Shown one piece after another: positions 152 to 47,850 of a DNA stretch of 47,850 bases (position 1 is its first letter; every line of letters begins with the position of its first letter). The position numbers were made by a program, and so were the translations under genes. The notes under the pieces are model-generated. The model was given only the letters and a program-made list of their open reading frames with translations, was not told the origin of the DNA and searched no databases. Source of the DNA: a virus; IMG/VR virus record IMGVR_UViG_3300005663_000071, positions 1-47,850 of that record. One strand, given 5' to 3'.

Positions 152-450
152 TAGTTTTTGCTCTTTATAACAGAATACAGATTAAGGCAGTGGCGGACTA
201 AGAAAGTGACGGACAGCTTGGACCTGTCTATAAATGAGTTACGAGCCTGCCTTATACATAATCCATCGTCGGCGGTGCTTATAGTAAGGCCAGTAATAGC
301 CGTAAGCCTGCCCGATGGACTAATACCGGCTGGCCGATGTGTCGTGTCGCTTCGCATTGTCAGTCAACCAGCAATAGACGCCTCCTAATGCAGATAACGG
401 CTGCTAACGAGTGTCGTGACGGGCCAAGGATGGCCCACTTTGCTGGTGTT
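152..450 (+). ncRNA. Structured non-coding RNA, copy A
   Basis: About 300 bases with no convincing gene but dense complementary segments. TAAGGCAG at 183-190 pairs with CTGCCTTA at 247-254 and encloses GACAG/CTGTC (212-216/224-228). TCCATCG at 262-268 pairs with CGATGGA at 313-319 around a long inner stem. ACCAGCAA at 367-374 pairs with TTGCTGGT at 440-447. GGGCC/GGCCC forms near 421-435. A diverged copy lies at 46437-46630 and keeps equivalent helices with changed bases, the signature of a conserved RNA fold. The domain at 179-326 is absent from the other copy and is flanked by AATAC (174-178 and 322-326). Family not identified. The strand is inferred from neighbouring genes. Confidence 0.6.
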
Positions 451-453
451 TAT

Positions 454-594
454 CTGGTTGCGGCGTGGTGGGCACACGCAGGTGGCAGTCGCCTATTAAA
501 AGACTGCATTGGAATACCTATGCTTGGAAACTCCGAGCAAATGCCCTATTGCGGGCCATGAAACGCATAGCACGTTCGAATCGTGCCAACCGGA
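454..594 (+). ncRNA. tRNA-like structure with a very large variable region
   Basis: The 7-bp acceptor-like helix CTGGTTG (454-460) pairs with CAACCGG (587-593), followed by A594. A D-arm-like hairpin GCGTG/CACGC is at 463-467/475-479. A second arm AGGTG/CGCCT (480-484/490-494) has only a 5-nt loop. A canonical T arm GCACG-TTCGAAT-CGTGC is at 570-586. Between the second arm and the T arm are about 75 bases that include a hairpin CTTGGA-AAC-TCCGAG, far longer than any normal variable arm. It directly follows the structured RNA at 152-450 and may be its 3' domain. A standard, chargeable tRNA is unlikely. A decayed tRNA is the alternative. Confidence 0.45.
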
Positions 595-596
595 TT

Positions 597-665
597 AGTG
601 GTGTAGTTTAAGATGGAGAATACGGGTTCATGGCCGTGATACAGGTTACAGTCCTGTCGCCGCTA
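597..665 (+). tRNA. tRNA-Met(CAU)-like gene, degenerate or atypical
   Basis: AGTGGTG (597-603) pairs with CGCCGCT (658-664) over 7 bp with two wobbles. TA follows at 604-605. The T arm ACAGG-TTACAGT-CCTGT (641-657) has a perfect 5-bp stem but a non-canonical loop. The anticodon arm TACGG/CCGTG (621-625/634-638) holds an 8-nt loop GTTCATGG with a centred CAT. The D arm is weak (GTTT with AGAA). No CCA is encoded. It may be a divergent phage tRNA-Met/Ile2 or a tRNA-derived element. It is 2 bases downstream of the larger tRNA-like fold. Confidence 0.4.
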
Positions 666-698: not shown

Positions 699-914
699 AT
701 GACAAAGAGAATCAGAGCAACATTGTTAGGGCAAAGAAAGCTGGTAGGCCGTCTTAGCGTCGCAGCGAATATATGCGGAACACCACAAGCGAACCTTGCT
801 TTTGAGTGTGCCGAGGACGACTTAGATGCTATTGAGGCGCAAGTGGGCCAACTCGAAGCCCAGTTTGACGCCCCATGTAATATACCACCATTAAGCAGTG
901 GAAAGAGAAAATGA
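699..914 (+). CDS. Small phage protein with conserved tail NIPPLSSGKRK
   Basis: A 71-residue protein, family unknown. The acidic C-terminal half (roughly residues 35-60) is predicted helical. The last eleven residues, NIPPLSSGKRK, recur exactly at the end of the small protein at 46911-47072, where LEAQF is also matched by LESQF. The two are therefore diverged paralogues sharing a strongly conserved basic tail. It lies downstream of structured RNA copy A and starts the small-gene run that leads to the Tad2-like gene. The TAAAAGG upstream is a modest ribosome site. Confidence 0.6.
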   Translation: MTKRIRATLLGQRKLVGRLSVAANICGTPQANLAFECAEDDLDAIEAQVGQLEAQFDAPCNIPPLSSGKRK

Positions 915-1113: not shown

Positions 1114-1557
1114 ATGGAAGAAAAACTAAAGTACATCGGAACCAAAATTATCCACGCCCAACCTATAAATCTCGGTAACTATAACGAATATCGTTGTTGG
1201 GATATTCCGAAAGACGAGGATCCGGCCAGAGAGGGCTATCTCGTCACCTATCAGGACGGTTATGAATCATGGAGTCCCAAAGACGTATTCGACGCCGCAT
1301 ACCGGCGTTGCGACGCTATGACGTTCGGGCTGGCACTGGAAGCCGTGAAGAAGGGGTTGAAGGTTGCCCGGGCTGGTTGGAACGGCAAAGGGATATTTAT
1401 ATATATTCCAGCAGAGATAGGCGAAATGACTAATCCGTATATTGCCATAAACACAACCGGCTTACAGACAGACAATGCAGCTGCGCCAAAATGTGTTGTG
1501 CCATGGCTGGCGTCTCAAACAGACATGCTTGCCGAGGACTGGATGATCGTAGAATAA
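1114..1557 (+). CDS. Tad2-like (DUF2829) protein with an extra N-terminal domain, putative anti-Thoeris
   Basis: 147 residues. Residues ~68-147 show the DUF2829 pattern: MTFGLALEAVKKG, VARAGWNGKG, FIYIPA, then the ending VPWLASQTDMLAEDW. Known members of this family (Tad2) are phage anti-defence proteins that sequester the cyclic ADP-ribose-type signal made by Thoeris ThsB. Residues 1-65 form a separate domain with the motif EGYLVTYQDGYESWSPK; the protein at 45605-45880 is a relative of that domain alone. The anti-Thoeris role is inferred from family membership. The gene is last in its run, followed directly by a terminator element. Confidence 0.8.
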   Translation: MEEKLKYIGTKIIHAQPINLGNYNEYRCWDIPKDEDPAREGYLVTYQDGYESWSPKDVFDAAYRRCDAMTFGLALEAVKKGLKVARAGWNGKGIFIYIPAEIGEMTNPYIAINTTGLQTDNAAAPKCVVPWLASQTDMLAEDWMIVE

Positions 1558-3226: not shown

Positions 3227-3331
3227 ATGCTAAATACTGTAACTACAAAGACTTATAAGCTGTATCAGTCGAGACTTGGACTTGTAACCACTGGTTGGAC
3301 AGACCAGAGAGAGCCAAGGAGCAAGCTATGA
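3227..3331 (+). CDS. Small hypothetical protein (34 aa)
   Basis: The ATG at 3227 opens 34 codons ending TGA at 3329-3331, and its stop overlaps the next ATG as ATGA. The product is basic and has no recognisable motif. There is no good ribosome site. The tight overlap is the main support. Confidence 0.35.
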   Translation: MLNTVTTKTYKLYQSRLGLVTTGWTDQREPRSKL

Positions 3332-3707: not shown

Positions 3708-3759
3708 GACTATAAATTTTGACATGTTACAATATCAGTGGGACTTTTATGCCAACTAA
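3697..3759 (+). pseudogene. Duplicated 5' end of terL (20-codon remnant)
   Basis: The ATG at 3697 encodes MPTKTINF..., then YQWDFYAN and stop. It matches the true TerL start MPTKEFDTKQFQWDFFSA. ATGCCAACTAA occurs at 3697-3707 and again at 3749-3759; CAGTGGGACTT recurs in both. The copies are offset by 52 bases, so the first cannot read into TerL. It is best seen as a diverged tandem duplication of the gene start. Confidence 0.7.
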
Positions 3760-5260
3760 AGAATTTGACACAAAACAGTTTCAGTGGGACTTCTTTTCCG
3801 CTGTTAATCGCTACCCGGCTATGATAGCTGGTTGGGGGAGCGGCAAGACCTTATGGTCATTGATGAAAGGAGTTGAGTTATCGAAGGCGTATAAGGATAA
3901 TTTAGGCGTCATTGTAAGGTCAGAGGGCACTAAATTGCGTGATTCCACGATGAAGGATTTTACCAGACTGACAAATATACATGTGCCGCAAGGCACTAAT
4001 GAAGCAAAATATGCTAACGGTTCTTCTGTTTTGTTTCGTAATGCGAAAGATTTATCGGGGCTTCAAAATGTCAACATAGGGTGGTTTTATATCGAACAGG
4101 CAGAGGAATTTCCCACAGATACGCAATTTCAGTTGCTTAGAGGTCGATTGAGGAGGGTTTTAACCCCCAAGGTGGAAGTTCAAGAGCGATTAATGAACAC
4201 CATATCCCACCATACCAGCCTGCCTGCACTGAAAAAAGTCTCCGAGGACTGGCAGTTCTTATCTGGTGACGCACTCAACAAAGAAGGTAACCGGATTATT
4301 CATCCTGAACTTAAAGAGAATCCCGAAATAAAAGATGAAGATAAGTTTATGAGCGAACGGGATATTGCTGAGTTGGCATTAGTCAATCAGTTAGGTATTC
4401 CGTTACGTCAGGGAATAGTAATAGCCAATGCCAATGGACATAACTGGTGCTGGAAGATGTTTATTAAAAGCCCCCAGCCTATGTATTCTTGTGTACAAGC
4501 TACCGGATTCGATAATGCGGGTAATATCCCATCTGATACGCTTATTGATTGGGCGGACATGAAAATTACCGCTCCGGCAAAATATAAACAATACGTTATG
4601 AACTGTCACGATGAGGTTGATCTTGACGCTTGTTATTACGTTTCGATAATGAACAAACTGCGAGCGAATAATCACATCTGTCACGTTGCCTACGATCCAT
4701 CTGTTCGGGTGCATCTTTCTCTCGATATTGGCCTCGACTGCACAGCGATATGGTTCCTCCAAGTGGTTAAGGGTCGTCGTAATTTGATTGATTATTATGA
4801 GAACACCGGCAAGTACGTCGATCATTACGCTAAAGTTCTGGACGACAGGGGCTATAACTATGGCAAACTGATACTGCCGCATGACGGGGCTGCCCGGAGT
4901 AAAACTGATGGCGCAACTTACGCCAAATGCCTGAAAGATATGGGCTATAATGTACTTGTTAATACCCGGATAAAGACGAAAGATGTTGGTATCAACCTGA
5001 CAGCTAATGCGTTGCCGTCGTTTTACATCGACGAGGATAAATGCAAAGACGGCATAGAAGCCTTGGATCACTACCGCCGAGAGTTCGATGAGGAGAATAA
5101 GGTTTACAGGGAATATCCGCTCCACGACTGGGCTTCACACCCTTGCGATTCGCTCAAGGAAATGTGTCAGGCGTTGAAAGCCGGGAAGCTGGGCAGCGTA
5201 GTTTCGATAACCAAAGGTCAGGTGAATAAATGGTCGAAGAAATATAAGAGGACAGGATAA
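3749..5260 (+). CDS. terL: Terminase large subunit
   Basis: 503 residues from MPTKEF. The packaging ATPase has Walker A AGWGSGKT near residue 30 and an acidic Walker-B-like strand WFYIEQAEEFP near residue 115. The C-terminal nuclease (RNase H fold) shows LSLDIGLDCTAI, then LPHDG and HDWASHPCDSLKEM, giving the conserved acidic residues. It pumps DNA into the prohead through the portal and cuts it. The start at 3749 matches family N-termini; an in-frame TTG at 3719 would run through the duplicated start region. Weak ribosome site GGGA. Confidence 0.92.
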   Translation: MPTKEFDTKQFQWDFFSAVNRYPAMIAGWGSGKTLWSLMKGVELSKAYKDNLGVIVRSEGTKLRDSTMKDFTRLTNIHVPQGTNEAKYANGSSVLFRNAKDLSGLQNVNIGWFYIEQAEEFPTDTQFQLLRGRLRRVLTPKVEVQERLMNTISHHTSLPALKKVSEDWQFLSGDALNKEGNRIIHPELKENPEIKDEDKFMSERDIAELALVNQLGIPLRQGIVIANANGHNWCWKMFIKSPQPMYSCVQATGFDNAGNIPSDTLIDWADMKITAPAKYKQYVMNCHDEVDLDACYYVSIMNKLRANNHICHVAYDPSVRVHLSLDIGLDCTAIWFLQVVKGRRNLIDYYENTGKYVDHYAKVLDDRGYNYGKLILPHDGAARSKTDGATYAKCLKDMGYNVLVNTRIKTKDVGINLTANALPSFYIDEDKCKDGIEALDHYRREFDEENKVYREYPLHDWASHPCDSLKEMCQALKAGKLGSVVSITKGQVNKWSKKYKRTG

Positions 5261-30007: not shown

Positions 30008-30223
30008 ATGAACAATAAGATTCAACAATTAACTTTTAACAGGGATAGTTATTCTGACGTCCTTGAAGTAACCGACGAACTTGCTGCCTTAGAGCAACGA
30101 AAGCCTCACGATTCCATTCGCCTACTCATCCTTGAGGCTGGGCGGGCAAAAATAGATAAACTTCGTTCTGGAAACCCTACTCCGGAAAACAAAGATACAG
30201 ATTCCCAAAGTGGAAGTCAATAG
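30008..30223 (+). CDS. Small protein, first gene of the early operon
   Basis: 71 residues from the ATG at 30008, with GGAG 7 bases upstream. Residues ~5-60 (QQLTFNRDSYSDVLEV, then HDSIRLLILEAGRAKIDKL) have a short strand then helices, in keeping with a ribbon-helix-helix fold. The end DSQSGSQ is shared with the next protein because of the 40-bp direct repeat. Possible regulator. Confidence 0.5.
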   Translation: MNNKIQQLTFNRDSYSDVLEVTDELAALEQRKPHDSIRLLILEAGRAKIDKLRSGNPTPENKDTDSQSGSQ

Positions 30224-30243
30224 AAAAACAATAATTTTTTGAA
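30204..30243 (+). repeat. Direct repeat, left copy (40 bp)
   Basis: From CCCAAAGTGG to TTTTTTGAA. It matches 31065-31104 at 39 of 40 bases (C at 30229, T at 31090). The two copies bracket the DUF4116-like gene exactly from stop region to stop region. Confidence 0.9.
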
Positions 30244-30256
30244 ATGGAGCAGAAAA

Positions 30257-31084
30257 ATGACACTAAATGAATTTTTGCAAGAAGTAGGCGGCGATGAGAG
30301 CCAAATAATCTGCTATGTAGCCGAAGAAGCCTTGGAAGCCGTCAAAGAAGATGGCTACGCACTCCAGTACGTCAAAGAGCAGACAGAGCAGGTTTGCTTG
30401 GAAGCCGTCAAACGCAATGGCTACGCACTCCAGTACGTCAAAGAGCAGACAGAGCAGGTTTGCTTGGAAGCCGTCAAACGCAATGGCTACGCACTCCAGT
30501 ACGTCAAAGAGCAGACAGAGCAGGTTTGCTTGGAAGCCGTCAAACGCAATGGCTACGCACTCCGGTACGTCAAAGAGCAGACAGAGCAGGTTTGCTTGGA
30601 AGCCGTCAAACGCAATGGCTACGCACTCCAGTACGTCAAAGAGCAGACAGAGCAGGTTTGCTTGGAAGCCGTCAAACGCAATGGCGACGCACTCCGGTAC
30701 GTCAAAGAGCAGACAGAGCAGGTTTGCTTGGAAGCCGTCAAACGCAATGGCTACGCACTCCAGTACGTCAAAGAGCAGACAGAGCAGGTTTGCTTGGAAG
30801 CCGTCAAACGCAATGGCTACGCACTCCGGTACGTCAAAGAGCAGACAGAGCAGGTTTGCTTGGAAGCCGTCAAACGCAATGGCTACGCACTCCAGTACGT
30901 CAAAGAGCAGACAGAGCAGGTTTGCTTGGAAGCCGTCAAACGCAATGGCTACGCACTCCGGTACGTCAAAGAGCAGACAGAGCAGGTTTGCTTGGAAGCC
31001 GTCAAAGAAGATGGCTACGCACTCCAGTACGTCAGCAAAAAAGTCTTTTCGGTAGAAATTCAGGCCCAAAGTGGAAGTCAATAG
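30257..31084 (+). CDS. DUF4116-like repeat protein
   Basis: 275 residues from the ATG at 30257 (GGAG 8 bases upstream). After ~25 residues (LNEFLQEVGGDESQ) come eleven 22-residue units with consensus EAVKRNGYALQYVKEQTEQVCL; the first and last units read EAVKEDG. Units alternate Gln/Arg in ALQYV/ALRYV and one has DAL for YAL. The pattern matches DUF4116-type helical repeats known from bacteria and giant viruses, where they may mediate protein-protein contact. DNA units are 66 bp and nearly identical, so copy number probably changes readily. Function unknown. Confidence 0.75.
   Translation: MTLNEFLQEVGGDESQIICYVAEEALEAVKEDGYALQYVKEQTEQVCLEAVKRNGYALQYVKEQTEQVCLEAVKRNGYALQYVKEQTEQVCLEAVKRNGYALRYVKEQTEQVCLEAVKRNGYALQYVKEQTEQVCLEAVKRNGDALRYVKEQTEQVCLEAVKRNGYALQYVKEQTEQVCLEAVKRNGYALRYVKEQTEQVCLEAVKRNGYALQYVKEQTEQVCLEAVKRNGYALRYVKEQTEQVCLEAVKEDGYALQYVSKKVFSVEIQAQSGSQ
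30335..31034 (+). repeat. 66-bp tandem repeat array, 10.6 units
   Basis: Units start at 30335, 30401 and every 66 bases to 30995; the eleventh is partial. Almost all differences are CAG/CGG in the ALQ/ALR codon, one TAC/GAC and the KRN/KED edges. Two other plus frames and one minus frame are also free of stops throughout the array. Confidence 0.95.
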
Positions 31085-31104
31085 AAAAATAATAATTTTT
31101 TGAA
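31065..31104 (+). repeat. Direct repeat, right copy (40 bp)
   Basis: Matches 30204-30243 with one mismatch. It encodes the shared QSGSQ end of the DUF4116-like protein and the AT-rich spacer after it. Recombination between the copies would cleanly delete that gene. Confidence 0.9.
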
Positions 31105-31115
31105 GCGAGTTGATT

Positions 31116-31682
31116 ATGGGCGTTGAGCGAGTTGATTATTATTCGGAAGATGAATTCCAACAAGCATTGGAAGAAGAACAGCAAAGCTATGGTTCGCAAC
31201 CGCAAGAGCCTGACGTTGTACCTTGTTTCAAATGTGGCGGTCAGATGTATCAAGAATGTCACGCGCCAGAGGGCAATATCTGTGAGACTTGCGAGAAAGC
31301 CGGAAACAGGAGACCTCCAATGAAAGCTGAACGGATAAAAGAAATCAAAATGAGGCTAACTTGCCTTGATTACCACGGCAATAGTAAAGCTGTACTAAGG
31401 AAAGATATTACCGAACTCCTCACTGCCCTTGAATCAGCCCAGTCCGAGAATGAGCGGTATAAGGCGGCGTTAGAGAAACTACTTGAAATCCATCCTGATA
31501 TGTGCGGTATGTGTGAGCATTTTGACGAACAAGACGATGCCCATTTTTGCTGGGAACATCTTCAAGATATGGAAATAACCGAAGGCCGAGAGGCTTGCGA
31601 AGATAATTTCAAGATGACCGAATGGTTCGTAGAGCATGTAGGCAGTGCCCGCAAAACCCTCAAACAAGAATCAACCGGTTAG
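31116..31682 (+). CDS. Hypothetical Cys-rich protein with two putative zinc sites
   Basis: 188 residues. First zinc-like site CFKCGG...CHAPEG...CETC at ~residues 35-62. Then a region (AERIKEIKMRLTCLDY to RYKAALEKLL) common in phage NAKL-like proteins, and a second site CGMCEHF...CWEH...CEDNF resembling the small CExCxH modules. GCGAGTTGATTAT occurs twice at the start (31104 and 31126 regions). Function unknown. Confidence 0.55.
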   Translation: MGVERVDYYSEDEFQQALEEEQQSYGSQPQEPDVVPCFKCGGQMYQECHAPEGNICETCEKAGNRRPPMKAERIKEIKMRLTCLDYHGNSKAVLRKDITELLTALESAQSENERYKAALEKLLEIHPDMCGMCEHFDEQDDAHFCWEHLQDMEITEGREACEDNFKMTEWFVEHVGSARKTLKQESTG

Positions 31683-45303: not shown

Positions 45304-45537
45304 GATACCAGACAGATACCAGTAAACCGGACAGGTAGTGTATGGATTATGTTAAGTGCTGTAATCATAAAGGCTTATAAAAGCCAACGGTCGGAATCGA
45401 ACCGACAACCGCTGGTTTACAAAACCAGAGAGAGGGTATATTTTTTTATCAAAACCGCACTCACAATAAAAATAATGCGACATAGTGCGACAAACCCCGC
45501 CAAACTGCGACACTAAAAAGATACCAAACCGATACCA
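45304..45537. other. attP region with arm-site-like repeats
   Basis: Around the tRNA-derived core are repeats typical of integrase arm sites: GATACCA at 45304-45310, 45315-45321, 45520-45526 and 45531-45537, and TGCGACA at 45476-45482, 45486-45492 and 45506-45512. Having them on both sides of the core points to an unsplit attP. No gene is apparent in 45300-45590; this region together with the leader explains the gap. Confidence 0.6.
45383..45428 (-). other. attP core: 3' half of a tRNA-Thr(UGU) gene
   Basis: On the minus strand: anticodon arm CTGGTTTTGTAAACCAG (45428-45412, anticodon TGT), T arm GTCGG-TTCGATT-CCGAC (45406-45390) and acceptor end CGTTGGC (45389-45383). No 5' half (GCCAACG and D arm) is present upstream. 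The phage copy presumably restores the host tRNA gene after integration. Confidence 0.85.
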
Positions 45538-45567: not shown

Positions 45568-45604
45568 ATGTTGTAGGAATAATTTTATGTACCGGAGAAA
45601 GAAA

Positions 45605-45880
45605 ATGGCAGTATCAGCAGAAATGCCAAAATATGTGTGCCACAAAGAAGTGTATGCACTGAAAATCAAAAGCATCGACCATGATGACGCTGTTTCTGGT
45701 GGTCCTAATAAGGCAACAATTACACCAGAAGATGAGCGATATGATCCATTTGAGGTTGACGCTGCATACATGGAAAAGCATAAACCGGCTATAGGTGGGT
45801 ACTATGTTGTTTACAAAGACGGATATAAGTCATTCTCCCCAGCAGAAGCATTTGAAGGTGGATATACTTTGGTTGTTTAG
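45605..45880 (+). CDS. Stand-alone relative of the N-terminal domain of the Tad2-like protein
   Basis: 91 residues from the ATG at 45605 (GGAG 8 bases upstream). The C-terminal half HKPAIGGYYVVYKDGYKSFS, then PAEAFEGGYT, matches EGYLVTYQDGYESWSPKDVF in the protein at 1114-1557 but there is no DUF2829 part. Starts the region right of attP. Function unknown; possibly an accessory to, or relic of, an anti-defence gene. Confidence 0.7.
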   Translation: MAVSAEMPKYVCHKEVYALKIKSIDHDDAVSGGPNKATITPEDERYDPFEVDAAYMEKHKPAIGGYYVVYKDGYKSFSPAEAFEGGYTLVV

Positions 45881-46104: not shown

Positions 46105-46409
46105 GATACCAAACAGTATTTGATATGCAATTTGGAGTAAAGCGTCAGGCCGATTCGTCCATGGTGAATGTGTCGTGCGCCCAAGCTGCTCCGATGTTCC
46201 ATGGTATTCCTATACGTTTTAGTGAGCATTGCGTGGAGCGTAAGCATAAAGTCAAGCGATGGAACAGACTTAACCGTCCATCAAAAGTGAGACACAGGTA
46301 TACAGAAAGGCCATGTGCATACAAACTTGAACCGCCAATGGTTGACCAAACAACAGTGCTATGCCATCCAGATTTCGAGAAACAACTGGAAAAGATGAGG
46401 CTAAACTAA
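46101..46409 (+). CDS. Hypothetical basic protein (102 aa)
   Basis: Basic and His/Cys-containing (HGIPIRFSEHCVERKHKVKR), with an ending EKQLEKMRLN. Contains TTVLCHPDFEKQL, reminiscent of small phage proteins that begin near structural regions. Directly precedes structured RNA copy B. No family recognised. Confidence 0.5.
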   Translation: MRYQTVFDMQFGVKRQADSSMVNVSCAQAAPMFHGIPIRFSEHCVERKHKVKRWNRLNRPSKVRHRYTERPCAYKLEPPMVDQTTVLCHPDFEKQLEKMRLN

Positions 46410-46436: not shown

Positions 46437-46630
46437 TAGTTTTTGCTCTTTATAACCGAATACCGGCTGGCCGATGTATACTCCTCCGAGTGCATTGTCA
46501 GCTTAACTGGCATTGACGTGCCCCCGGCAAGGTTGCTACGGGTGTCGTGACGGGCTGAAATGGGATACGACGACCCTACTGTGTAGGTGAGAGCGTTAAG
46601 AACATATTAAGCCCTTTGCCAGTATTTTTG
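46437..46630 (+). ncRNA. Structured non-coding RNA, copy B
   Basis: Shares TAGTTTTTGCTCTTTATAAC, ATACCGGCTGGCCGATGT, GCATTGTCAG and GTGTCGTGACGGG (46542-46554) with the RNA at 152-450, in the same order. Equivalent helices use different bases: ACTGGCA/TGCCAGT (46506-46512/46617-46623), and CCCG-GCAA-GG-TTGC-CGGG (46523-46542). The extra domain present in copy A is absent. Ends with TTTTT (46624-46628) after the closing helix, so it may self-terminate. Confidence 0.6.
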
Positions 46631-46910: not shown

Positions 46911-47072
46911 ATGACTTTAACCGAACAAGTTGAGACGTCCGAAAAGCATCCGGTCACGATAAAGCGACTAAAAGAAGTTGATATTATGCTGAATATTGCC
47001 CTTTTCTTGGAAAGTCAATTCAATTCACCTCCGGCAAACATACCACCATTGAGCAGCGGAAAGAGAAAATGA
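46911..47072 (+). CDS. Small protein with conserved tail NIPPLSSGKRK (second copy)
   Basis: 53 residues from the ATG at 46911; a TTG at 46902 overlapping the previous stop is an alternative. Ends FLESQFNSPPANIPPLSSGKRK-like, matching the tail of the protein at 699-914. The two are paralogues; the N-terminal half has diverged. The shared tail suggests a conserved binding function for this basic peptide. Confidence 0.6.
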   Translation: MTLTEQVETSEKHPVTIKRLKEVDIMLNIALFLESQFNSPPANIPPLSSGKRK

Positions 47073-47075
47073 AAA

Positions 47076-47806: not shown

Positions 47807-47850
47807 AGCCGCGTAGCTTAAAGGTAAAGCACCGTGGATGACACGGAAGA
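47807..47850 (+). tRNA. 5' part of a tRNA-like gene, cut by the window edge
   Basis: AGCCGCG (acceptor, 47807-47813), TA, D arm GCTT-AAAGGTA-AAGC (47816-47830) with the GG of a D loop, then an arm CCGTG-GATGA-CACGG (47832-47846) whose loop is only 5 nt. The T arm and 3' acceptor are outside the window, so identity cannot be assigned. The stretch 47701-47806 contains no gene I can support. Confidence 0.45.

What the first reader, a model, noticed from the sequence alone, without database searches (positions are those of the whole stretch)
152..450. Duplicated structured RNA with compensatory changes (copies at 152-450 and 46437-46630)
The two stretches share four sequence blocks in the same order but have drifted elsewhere. 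The long-range helix is ACCAGCAA/TTGCTGGT in A and ACTGGCA/TGCCAGT in B, at the same place between the blocks. The hairpin just before the invariant GTGTCGTGACGGG is closed by CTC/GAG in A and CCCG/CGGG in B. Paired changes of this kind are what a conserved RNA structure produces. Identity is unknown; large phage RNAs such as GOLLD or ROOL are only a comparison I cannot test here.
Basis: partly seen in the sequence, partly recalled or inferred. Interest (0 to 1): 0.85.

Follow-up and report, generated by a model that had tools for sequence, protein, structure and literature searches.

The report
boxA-led structured phage RNA, two copies
A temperate phage, probably of Planctomycetota bacteria, carries two diverged copies of an untranslated folded RNA, each headed by a copy of the host's ribosomal-RNA 'do not stop transcribing' signal (boxA); one copy runs straight into oversized tRNA-like genes, which suggests the phage borrows the ribosomal-RNA antitermination machinery to make non-coding RNA.

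Summary
The two stretches (152-450, 46437-46630) share four blocks in order. A covariance model built from copy B alone finds copy A (E 1.7e-10). Five base pairs change on both sides between the copies, and no reading frame is shared. Nothing in Rfam matches, so GOLLD/ROOL is not supported. No other homologue was found in viral-collection scans, 38 related phage records or about 400 Phycisphaerae genomes.

GYTCTTTR occurs on the + strand only in the two copies. An attP-like tRNA-Thr piece beside the integrase matches only Planctomycetota MAGs, and 17 of 30 rRNA leaders of that order carry GYTCTTTR. Two related phages (L168, G018) carry boxA at the stop codon of an ORF, followed by untranslated tRNA-like arrays. 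Copy A likewise runs into a 140-nt tRNA-like element and a degenerate tRNA.

Best reading: a new phage non-coding RNA whose untranslated transcription is shielded from Rho by boxA. The function of the folded domain is unknown.

The parts
152..178 (+). Copy A block 1, TAGTTTTTGCTCTTTATAACAGAATAC, with boxA core GCTCTTTA at 160-167; starts 14 nt after the stop codon (136-138) of an upstream ORF
   Evidence: 96% identical to 46437-46463
184..253 (+). Copy A extra hairpin H1 (AAGGCAG/CTGCCTT), absent from copy B
263..318 (+). Copy A extra hairpin H2 (CCATCG/CGATGG), absent from B; resembles L168 2221-2160 (-) ATCATCGGGCGG..CCTGCCCCGATGAT
   Evidence: resemblance by eye only
329..363 (+). Copy A hairpin H3 (GCTGGC-GATGT / GCATT-GTCAG), shared with B
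367..447 (+). Copy A three-way junction H4: P1 367-373/441-447, P1a GACG 377-380/TGTC 412-415 plus CTC 382-384/GAG 409-411, invariant GTGAC 416-420, P1b GGGCC 421-425/GGCCC 432-436
454..593 (+). Hypertrophied tRNA-like element: acceptor CTGGTTG/CAACCGG, D arm GCGT-GGTGGGCAC-ACGC, T arm GCACG-TTCGAAT-CGTGC, about 65 nt extra between D and T arms
597..665 (+). Degenerate tRNA (CAT in an 8-nt anticodon loop; T loop TTACAGT)
   Evidence: Rfam tRNA 34.2 bits, E 2.6e-5
46437..46463 (+). Copy B block 1 with boxA core GCTCTTTA at 46445-46452; boxA lies 35 nt after the TAA (46407-46409) of the upstream ORF
46466..46503 (+). Copy B hairpin H3, directly after block 1
46506..46623 (+). Copy B three-way junction H4: P1 46506-46512/46617-46623, P1a GACG 46515-46518/TGTC 46543-46546 plus CCC 46521-46523/GGG 46540-46542, GTGAC 46547-46551, long P1b arm GGGCT 46552-46556/AGCCC 46610-46614; followed by ATTTTTG
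699..914 (+). Gene downstream of copy A; its C-terminus ...NIPPLSSGKRK is shared with the gene at 46911-47073 downstream of copy B
   Evidence: (D4)
46911..47073 (+). Paralogous gene downstream of copy B

Best explanation
Each copy is an untranslated, folded RNA segment inside a phage operon. It begins with a boxA at the boundary where translation of the upstream ORF ends. As RNA polymerase leaves the translated gene, boxA in the nascent RNA is bound by host NusB-S10, which assembles an rRNA-type antitermination complex on the polymerase and protects it from Rho while it transcribes the ribosome-free stretch: the folded RNA in both copies, and also two tRNA-like elements in copy A. The conserved H3-H4 domain (hairpin plus three-way junction with invariant GUGAC linker) is then released as a stable non-coding RNA, in copy A plausibly by RNase P cutting at the 5' end of the tRNA-like element at 454. 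Shown: the two-copy homology, the conserved pairing, the boxA core motif, its place after stop codons, the host-order rRNA boxA, and two relatives with the same arrangement. Inferred: NusB-S10 binding, Rho protection, processing, and any function in trans (unknown).
For: Pairing and homology. Not coding: (the spacing between blocks 1 and 2 differs by 148 nt, not a multiple of 3). boxA: GYTCTTTR occurs on the window's + strand only at 160 and 46445; published consensus GYTCTTTAANA for gamma-proteobacteria (PMC5725501). Host: the 33-nt tRNA-Thr fragment next to the integrase matches exactly in 5 genomes, all Planctomycetota; 17 of 30 16S leaders in that order carry GYTCTTTR, mostly continuing GACAAGTTAAC and about 180-245 nt upstream of 16S. 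Relatives: L168 (TerL 64% identical) has CAGTAGCTCTTTAACATAAC, boxA overlapping the stop codon, followed by about 650 nt without a predicted gene that hold a 186-nt tRNA (30.2 bits). G018 (portal 72%) has GGATAGTTGCTCTTTGACATAAC directly after a stop, followed by two tRNA-like elements. Precedent: boxA upstream of untranslated CRISPR arrays and long non-coding RNAs improves processivity (PMC7862264).
Against: The two copies' boxA is followed by TAAC instead of the ACAA of the host rRNA boxA. An 8-nt match is weak on its own, and the two copies count as one event because they are paralogues. No third homologue of H3-H4 was found, so the structure rests on two sequences. The folds are not more stable than shuffles. 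Copy B has no tRNA behind it and only about 200 nt of untranslated RNA, for which Rho protection is less obviously needed. No expression data.
Confidence: 0.5

Rival explanations
1. Cis-acting control element: boxA plus the folded domain form a nut/put-like antitermination site or a leader that regulates the gene behind it (46654 or 699), for example by Nus-factor occlusion as in suhB, or by pairing of the invariant GUGACGGGC with boxA.
For: RNAalifold without a given structure pairs block 1 (GCUC.UUAU) with GUGA.GGGC of block 3. boxA in E. coli represses the nearby suhB gene (PMC5725501). Related genes lie downstream of both copies.
Against: The alternative pairing is G-U rich and invariant, so it has no covariation. 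Copy A inserts 148 nt between boxA and H3-H4, which argues against a rigid composite site. In A two tRNA-like elements intervene before the gene.
Confidence: 0.22
2. H1, H2 and H4 are decayed or armless tRNA genes, so the whole of 152-665 is simply a degenerating phage tRNA array.
For: P1 is 7 bp like an acceptor stem, P1a has a 4-bp base like a D stem, true tRNA-like elements follow in A, and relatives have arrays of odd tRNAs.
Against: H4 has no T arm next to the acceptor-like stem; Rfam tRNA finds nothing in 152-450 even at E 5 or in copy B at E 10; sequence blocks are conserved between copies while arms compensate, which decay would not do.
Confidence: 0.12
3. Block 1 is a promoter (-10 TATAAC at 166-171 / 46451-46456) and the RNA starts just after it.
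For: TATAAC matches 5 of 6 bases of a -10 hexamer, and transcription would start near GAATAC.
Against: No -35-like hexamer is conserved at 16-18 nt, and the promoter scans list none at these sites (the scan demands T at the last -10 position). The conserved part is the GCTCTTT stretch. In L168 and G018 boxA is kept but TATAAC is not at that place.
Confidence: 0.1
4. A member of the large ornate phage RNAs (GOLLD, ROOL).
For: Phage-encoded, next to tRNA-like genes, several helices.
Against: No Rfam match to either copy; 195-300 nt versus more than 800 nt in many GOLLDs (PMC12286853); no shared motif seen.
Confidence: 0.03
5. A DNA-level repeat (recombination, packaging or att site) with incidental base pairing.
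For: The copies lie near opposite ends of the linear contig, and other sequences are duplicated there (D4).
Against: Compensatory changes, fixed strand, position between ORFs on the transcribed strand, boxA content.
Confidence: 0.03

Closest known systems
rrn leader/spacer boxA antitermination (E. coli rrnTAC; Sedimentisphaerales 16S leaders)
   Same: GYTCTTTR core, precedes an untranslated structured RNA and tRNAs, host motif nearly the same
   Different: In a phage operon directly after ORF stop codons; downstream RNA is not rRNA; the bases after GCTCTTTA diverge (TAAC instead of ACAA)
boxA upstream of CRISPR arrays
   Same: boxA guarding a long untranslated transcript
   Different: No CRISPR repeats here; phage-borne; RNA is a folded domain plus tRNA-like elements
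lambda nut / HK022 put sites
   Same: Phage RNA element with a boxA (nut) or RNA hairpins (put) acting on RNA polymerase
   Different: No boxB-N pair identified; H3-H4 is larger and its distance to boxA differs between the copies
GOLLD and ROOL RNAs
   Same: Phage non-coding RNA near tRNAs
   Different: No profile match, much smaller, different anatomy

Membership tests
boxA (NusB/S10 antitermination site) | Core sequence GYTCTTTR | tested here: met
   GCTCTTTA at 160-167 and 46445-46452, the only + strand matches in the window
boxA (NusB/S10 antitermination site) | Full gamma-proteobacterial consensus GYTCTTTAANA (PMC5725501) | tested here: not met
   GCTCTTTATAA; L168 GCTCTTTAACA meets it, G018 GCTCTTTGACA matches the host type
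boxA (NusB/S10 antitermination site) | Same core in the rRNA leader of the probable host group | tested here: met
   17 of 30 leaders of the order; host assignment rests on 33 nt of attP-like tRNA
boxA (NusB/S10 antitermination site) | Binds NusB-S10 and protects from Rho | not testable with these tools
   needs biochemistry
Structured non-coding RNA | Helices maintained by compensatory change | tested here: met
   Five double-sided changes, none broken in the chosen helices; only two sequences
Structured non-coding RNA | Support from independent homologues | tested here: not met
GOLLD / ROOL | Match to the Rfam covariance models | tested here: not met
tRNA (element 454-593) | 7-bp acceptor, D arm, T arm with TTCRANY loop | tested here: met
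tRNA (element 454-593) | Normal 7-nt anticodon loop without insertion | tested here: not met
   ARAGORN needs a 61-nt intron; the Rfam tRNA model does not report it

The most novel reading that the evidence does not exclude
A phage RNA device that uses the host rRNA boxA in duplicate: besides shielding its own untranslated array, the abundant boxA RNA titrates NusB-S10 away from host rRNA operons, or switches between a boxA-free and a boxA-sequestered fold (GUGACGGGC pairing with boxA), tying phage non-coding RNA output to host ribosome synthesis.
Probability: 0.07. Interest if true: 0.85.

Novelty: new variant of a known kind. Interest (0 to 1): 0.5.

Why it matters
If right, this extends boxA antitermination, known from rRNA, lambdoid nut sites and CRISPR leaders, to phage operons in Planctomycetota where it marks the switch from translated to untranslated RNA. 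It also adds an unclassified structured RNA and unusual, oversized phage tRNA-like elements. It gives a simple rule (boxA just after a stop codon) for finding hidden non-coding RNAs in phage genomes.

Tried and rejected
Rfam search of both copies and the whole window: nothing for the RNA. BLAST against phage records: none. RNA model R1 in related phages: only 5' block fragments at E 0.1-10, inspected and rejected. R1 hits in Sedimentisphaerales genomes (L240-L244) looked promising, but L243/L244 appear to lie in one repeated protein-coding (transposase-like) sequence and the others are chance. Pattern GCTCTTTATAACNGAATAC in host genomes: no more hits than the reversed control, and those inspected lack the RNA. 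Portal search in GTDB genomes: no relative. Downstream-gene search in viral contigs: none. Protein-coding explanation: rejected.

Full report
Observation. Both stretches exist as described and share four colinear blocks. A covariance model made only from copy B finds copy A with E 1.7e-10 (core) and 3.3e-6 (5' block), so the resemblance is far beyond chance. Each copy folded alone gives the same helices: a GGCTGGC hairpin (H3) and a three-way junction (H4) closed by a 7-8 bp long-range stem. Between the copies four pairs of H4 change on both sides and stay paired, and a fifth lies at the apex of H3. Sliding the partners by 1-3 columns drops pairing from 100% to 30-52%. A null of random substitutions keeps all 19 variable-helix pairs in 29 of 400,000 trials, with the caveat that the structure was picked by inspection. 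Column shuffles are weak with two sequences (31 of 500 reach the observed value), and neither fold is unusually stable (z -1.67 and -0.51). Copy A has two more hairpins (H1, H2) inserted between blocks 1 and 2. The insertion is 148 nt, so a shared reading frame is excluded, and frames are interrupted in six-frame translation.

Anatomy. Block 1 starts 14 nt (A) and 28 nt (B) after the stop codon of an ORF on the same strand, and both copies are followed by genes with the same C-terminus (NIPPLSSGKRK), so the RNA is part of a duplicated operon segment. Copy A is followed after 6 nt by a 140-nt element with a tRNA acceptor, D arm and T arm but about 65 extra nt, then by a degenerate tRNA with CAT. 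Copy B ends in P1 followed by ATTTTTG.

boxA. Block 1 contains GCTCTTTA. The published boxA consensus is GYTCTTTAANA in gamma-proteobacteria (PMC5725501). GYTCTTTR occurs 19 times in the window but on the + strand only at these two places. To test the reading I looked for the host. A tRNA-Thr 3' fragment beside the integrase (45388-45440, minus strand), which looks like attP, has exact 33-nt matches in five genomes, all Planctomycetota, including Sedimentisphaerales and Anaerohalosphaeraceae. In 30 16S loci from that order, 17 leaders hold GYTCTTTR, mostly GYTCTTTGACAAGTTAAC about 180-245 nt before 16S. So the motif is the rRNA boxA core of the probable host group. The phage's own version continues TAAC, which departs from the full consensus.

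Relatives. Terminase and portal searches gave about 40 related phage records. None carries H3-H4. Two of them, however, carry boxA exactly at the end of an ORF followed by gene-free sequence with tRNA-like elements. In L168 (minus strand 2380 to 1740) boxA overlaps the TAG and precedes about 650 nt with a 186-nt tRNA (30.2 bits). In G018 (L217 1859-2070) boxA follows the TAG by 2 nt and precedes two tRNA-like elements, one without a normal anticodon arm. The two share GCTCTTTRACATAACNATA, found nowhere else in IMG/VR. boxA at the transition from translated to untranslated RNA is thus a recurring arrangement in this phage group, although not every tRNA in it has one (for example the tRNA in L215).

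Mechanism. The best-supported account is Rho protection. boxA is known to improve polymerase processivity on rRNA, CRISPR arrays and other long non-coding RNAs (PMC7862264; PMC10250234). An untranslated, folded stretch inside an operon is a natural Rho target, and boxA sits where ribosomes leave the message. H3-H4 keeps its fold in both copies while its distance from boxA differs by 148 nt, which fits an autonomous RNA domain better than a rigid composite antitermination site. What H3-H4 does after transcription is not known.

Comparison. GOLLD and ROOL are not supported by profile search or size. The RNA has no Rfam family. It is best filed as a new candidate structured phage RNA with a known kind of transcription signal at its head. 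Its great weakness is that only two copies are known.

Noticed in passing
window 45388-45440 (minus strand): 3' half of a tRNA-Thr(TGT) next to the integrase, probably attP; exact 33-nt matches only in Planctomycetota genomes, pointing to the host group. A degenerate similar piece lies at 3286-3313.
   Followed up: yes
window 1114-1557 and 45587-45880: A Tad2-like protein (PF11195, Thoeris anti-defence 2-like) and, near copy B, a short protein related to its N-terminal part.
   Followed up: partly
L217 (G018) 940-1055: Non-coding stretch before an ORF with interleaved complementary pairs ACGTCGATA/TATCGACGT and GGCCCGC/GCGGGCC, i.e. a possible pseudoknot; no Rfam match.
   Followed up: no
L168 2152-1967 (-), L215 about 2672-2544 (-), window 454-593: Oversized phage tRNA-like elements (126-186 nt) with normal acceptor, D and T arms and large insertions in the anticodon/variable region.
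   Followed up: partly
window 47808-47850: Start of what looks like a further tRNA, cut by the contig end.
   Followed up: no
window 30199-31158: Tandem 66-bp repeats, about 11 copies, the central ones 97-98% identical, inside an ORF.
   Followed up: no
window 3719-5260: Large terminase with a variable insertion at residues about 137-228 relative to relatives.
   Followed up: no
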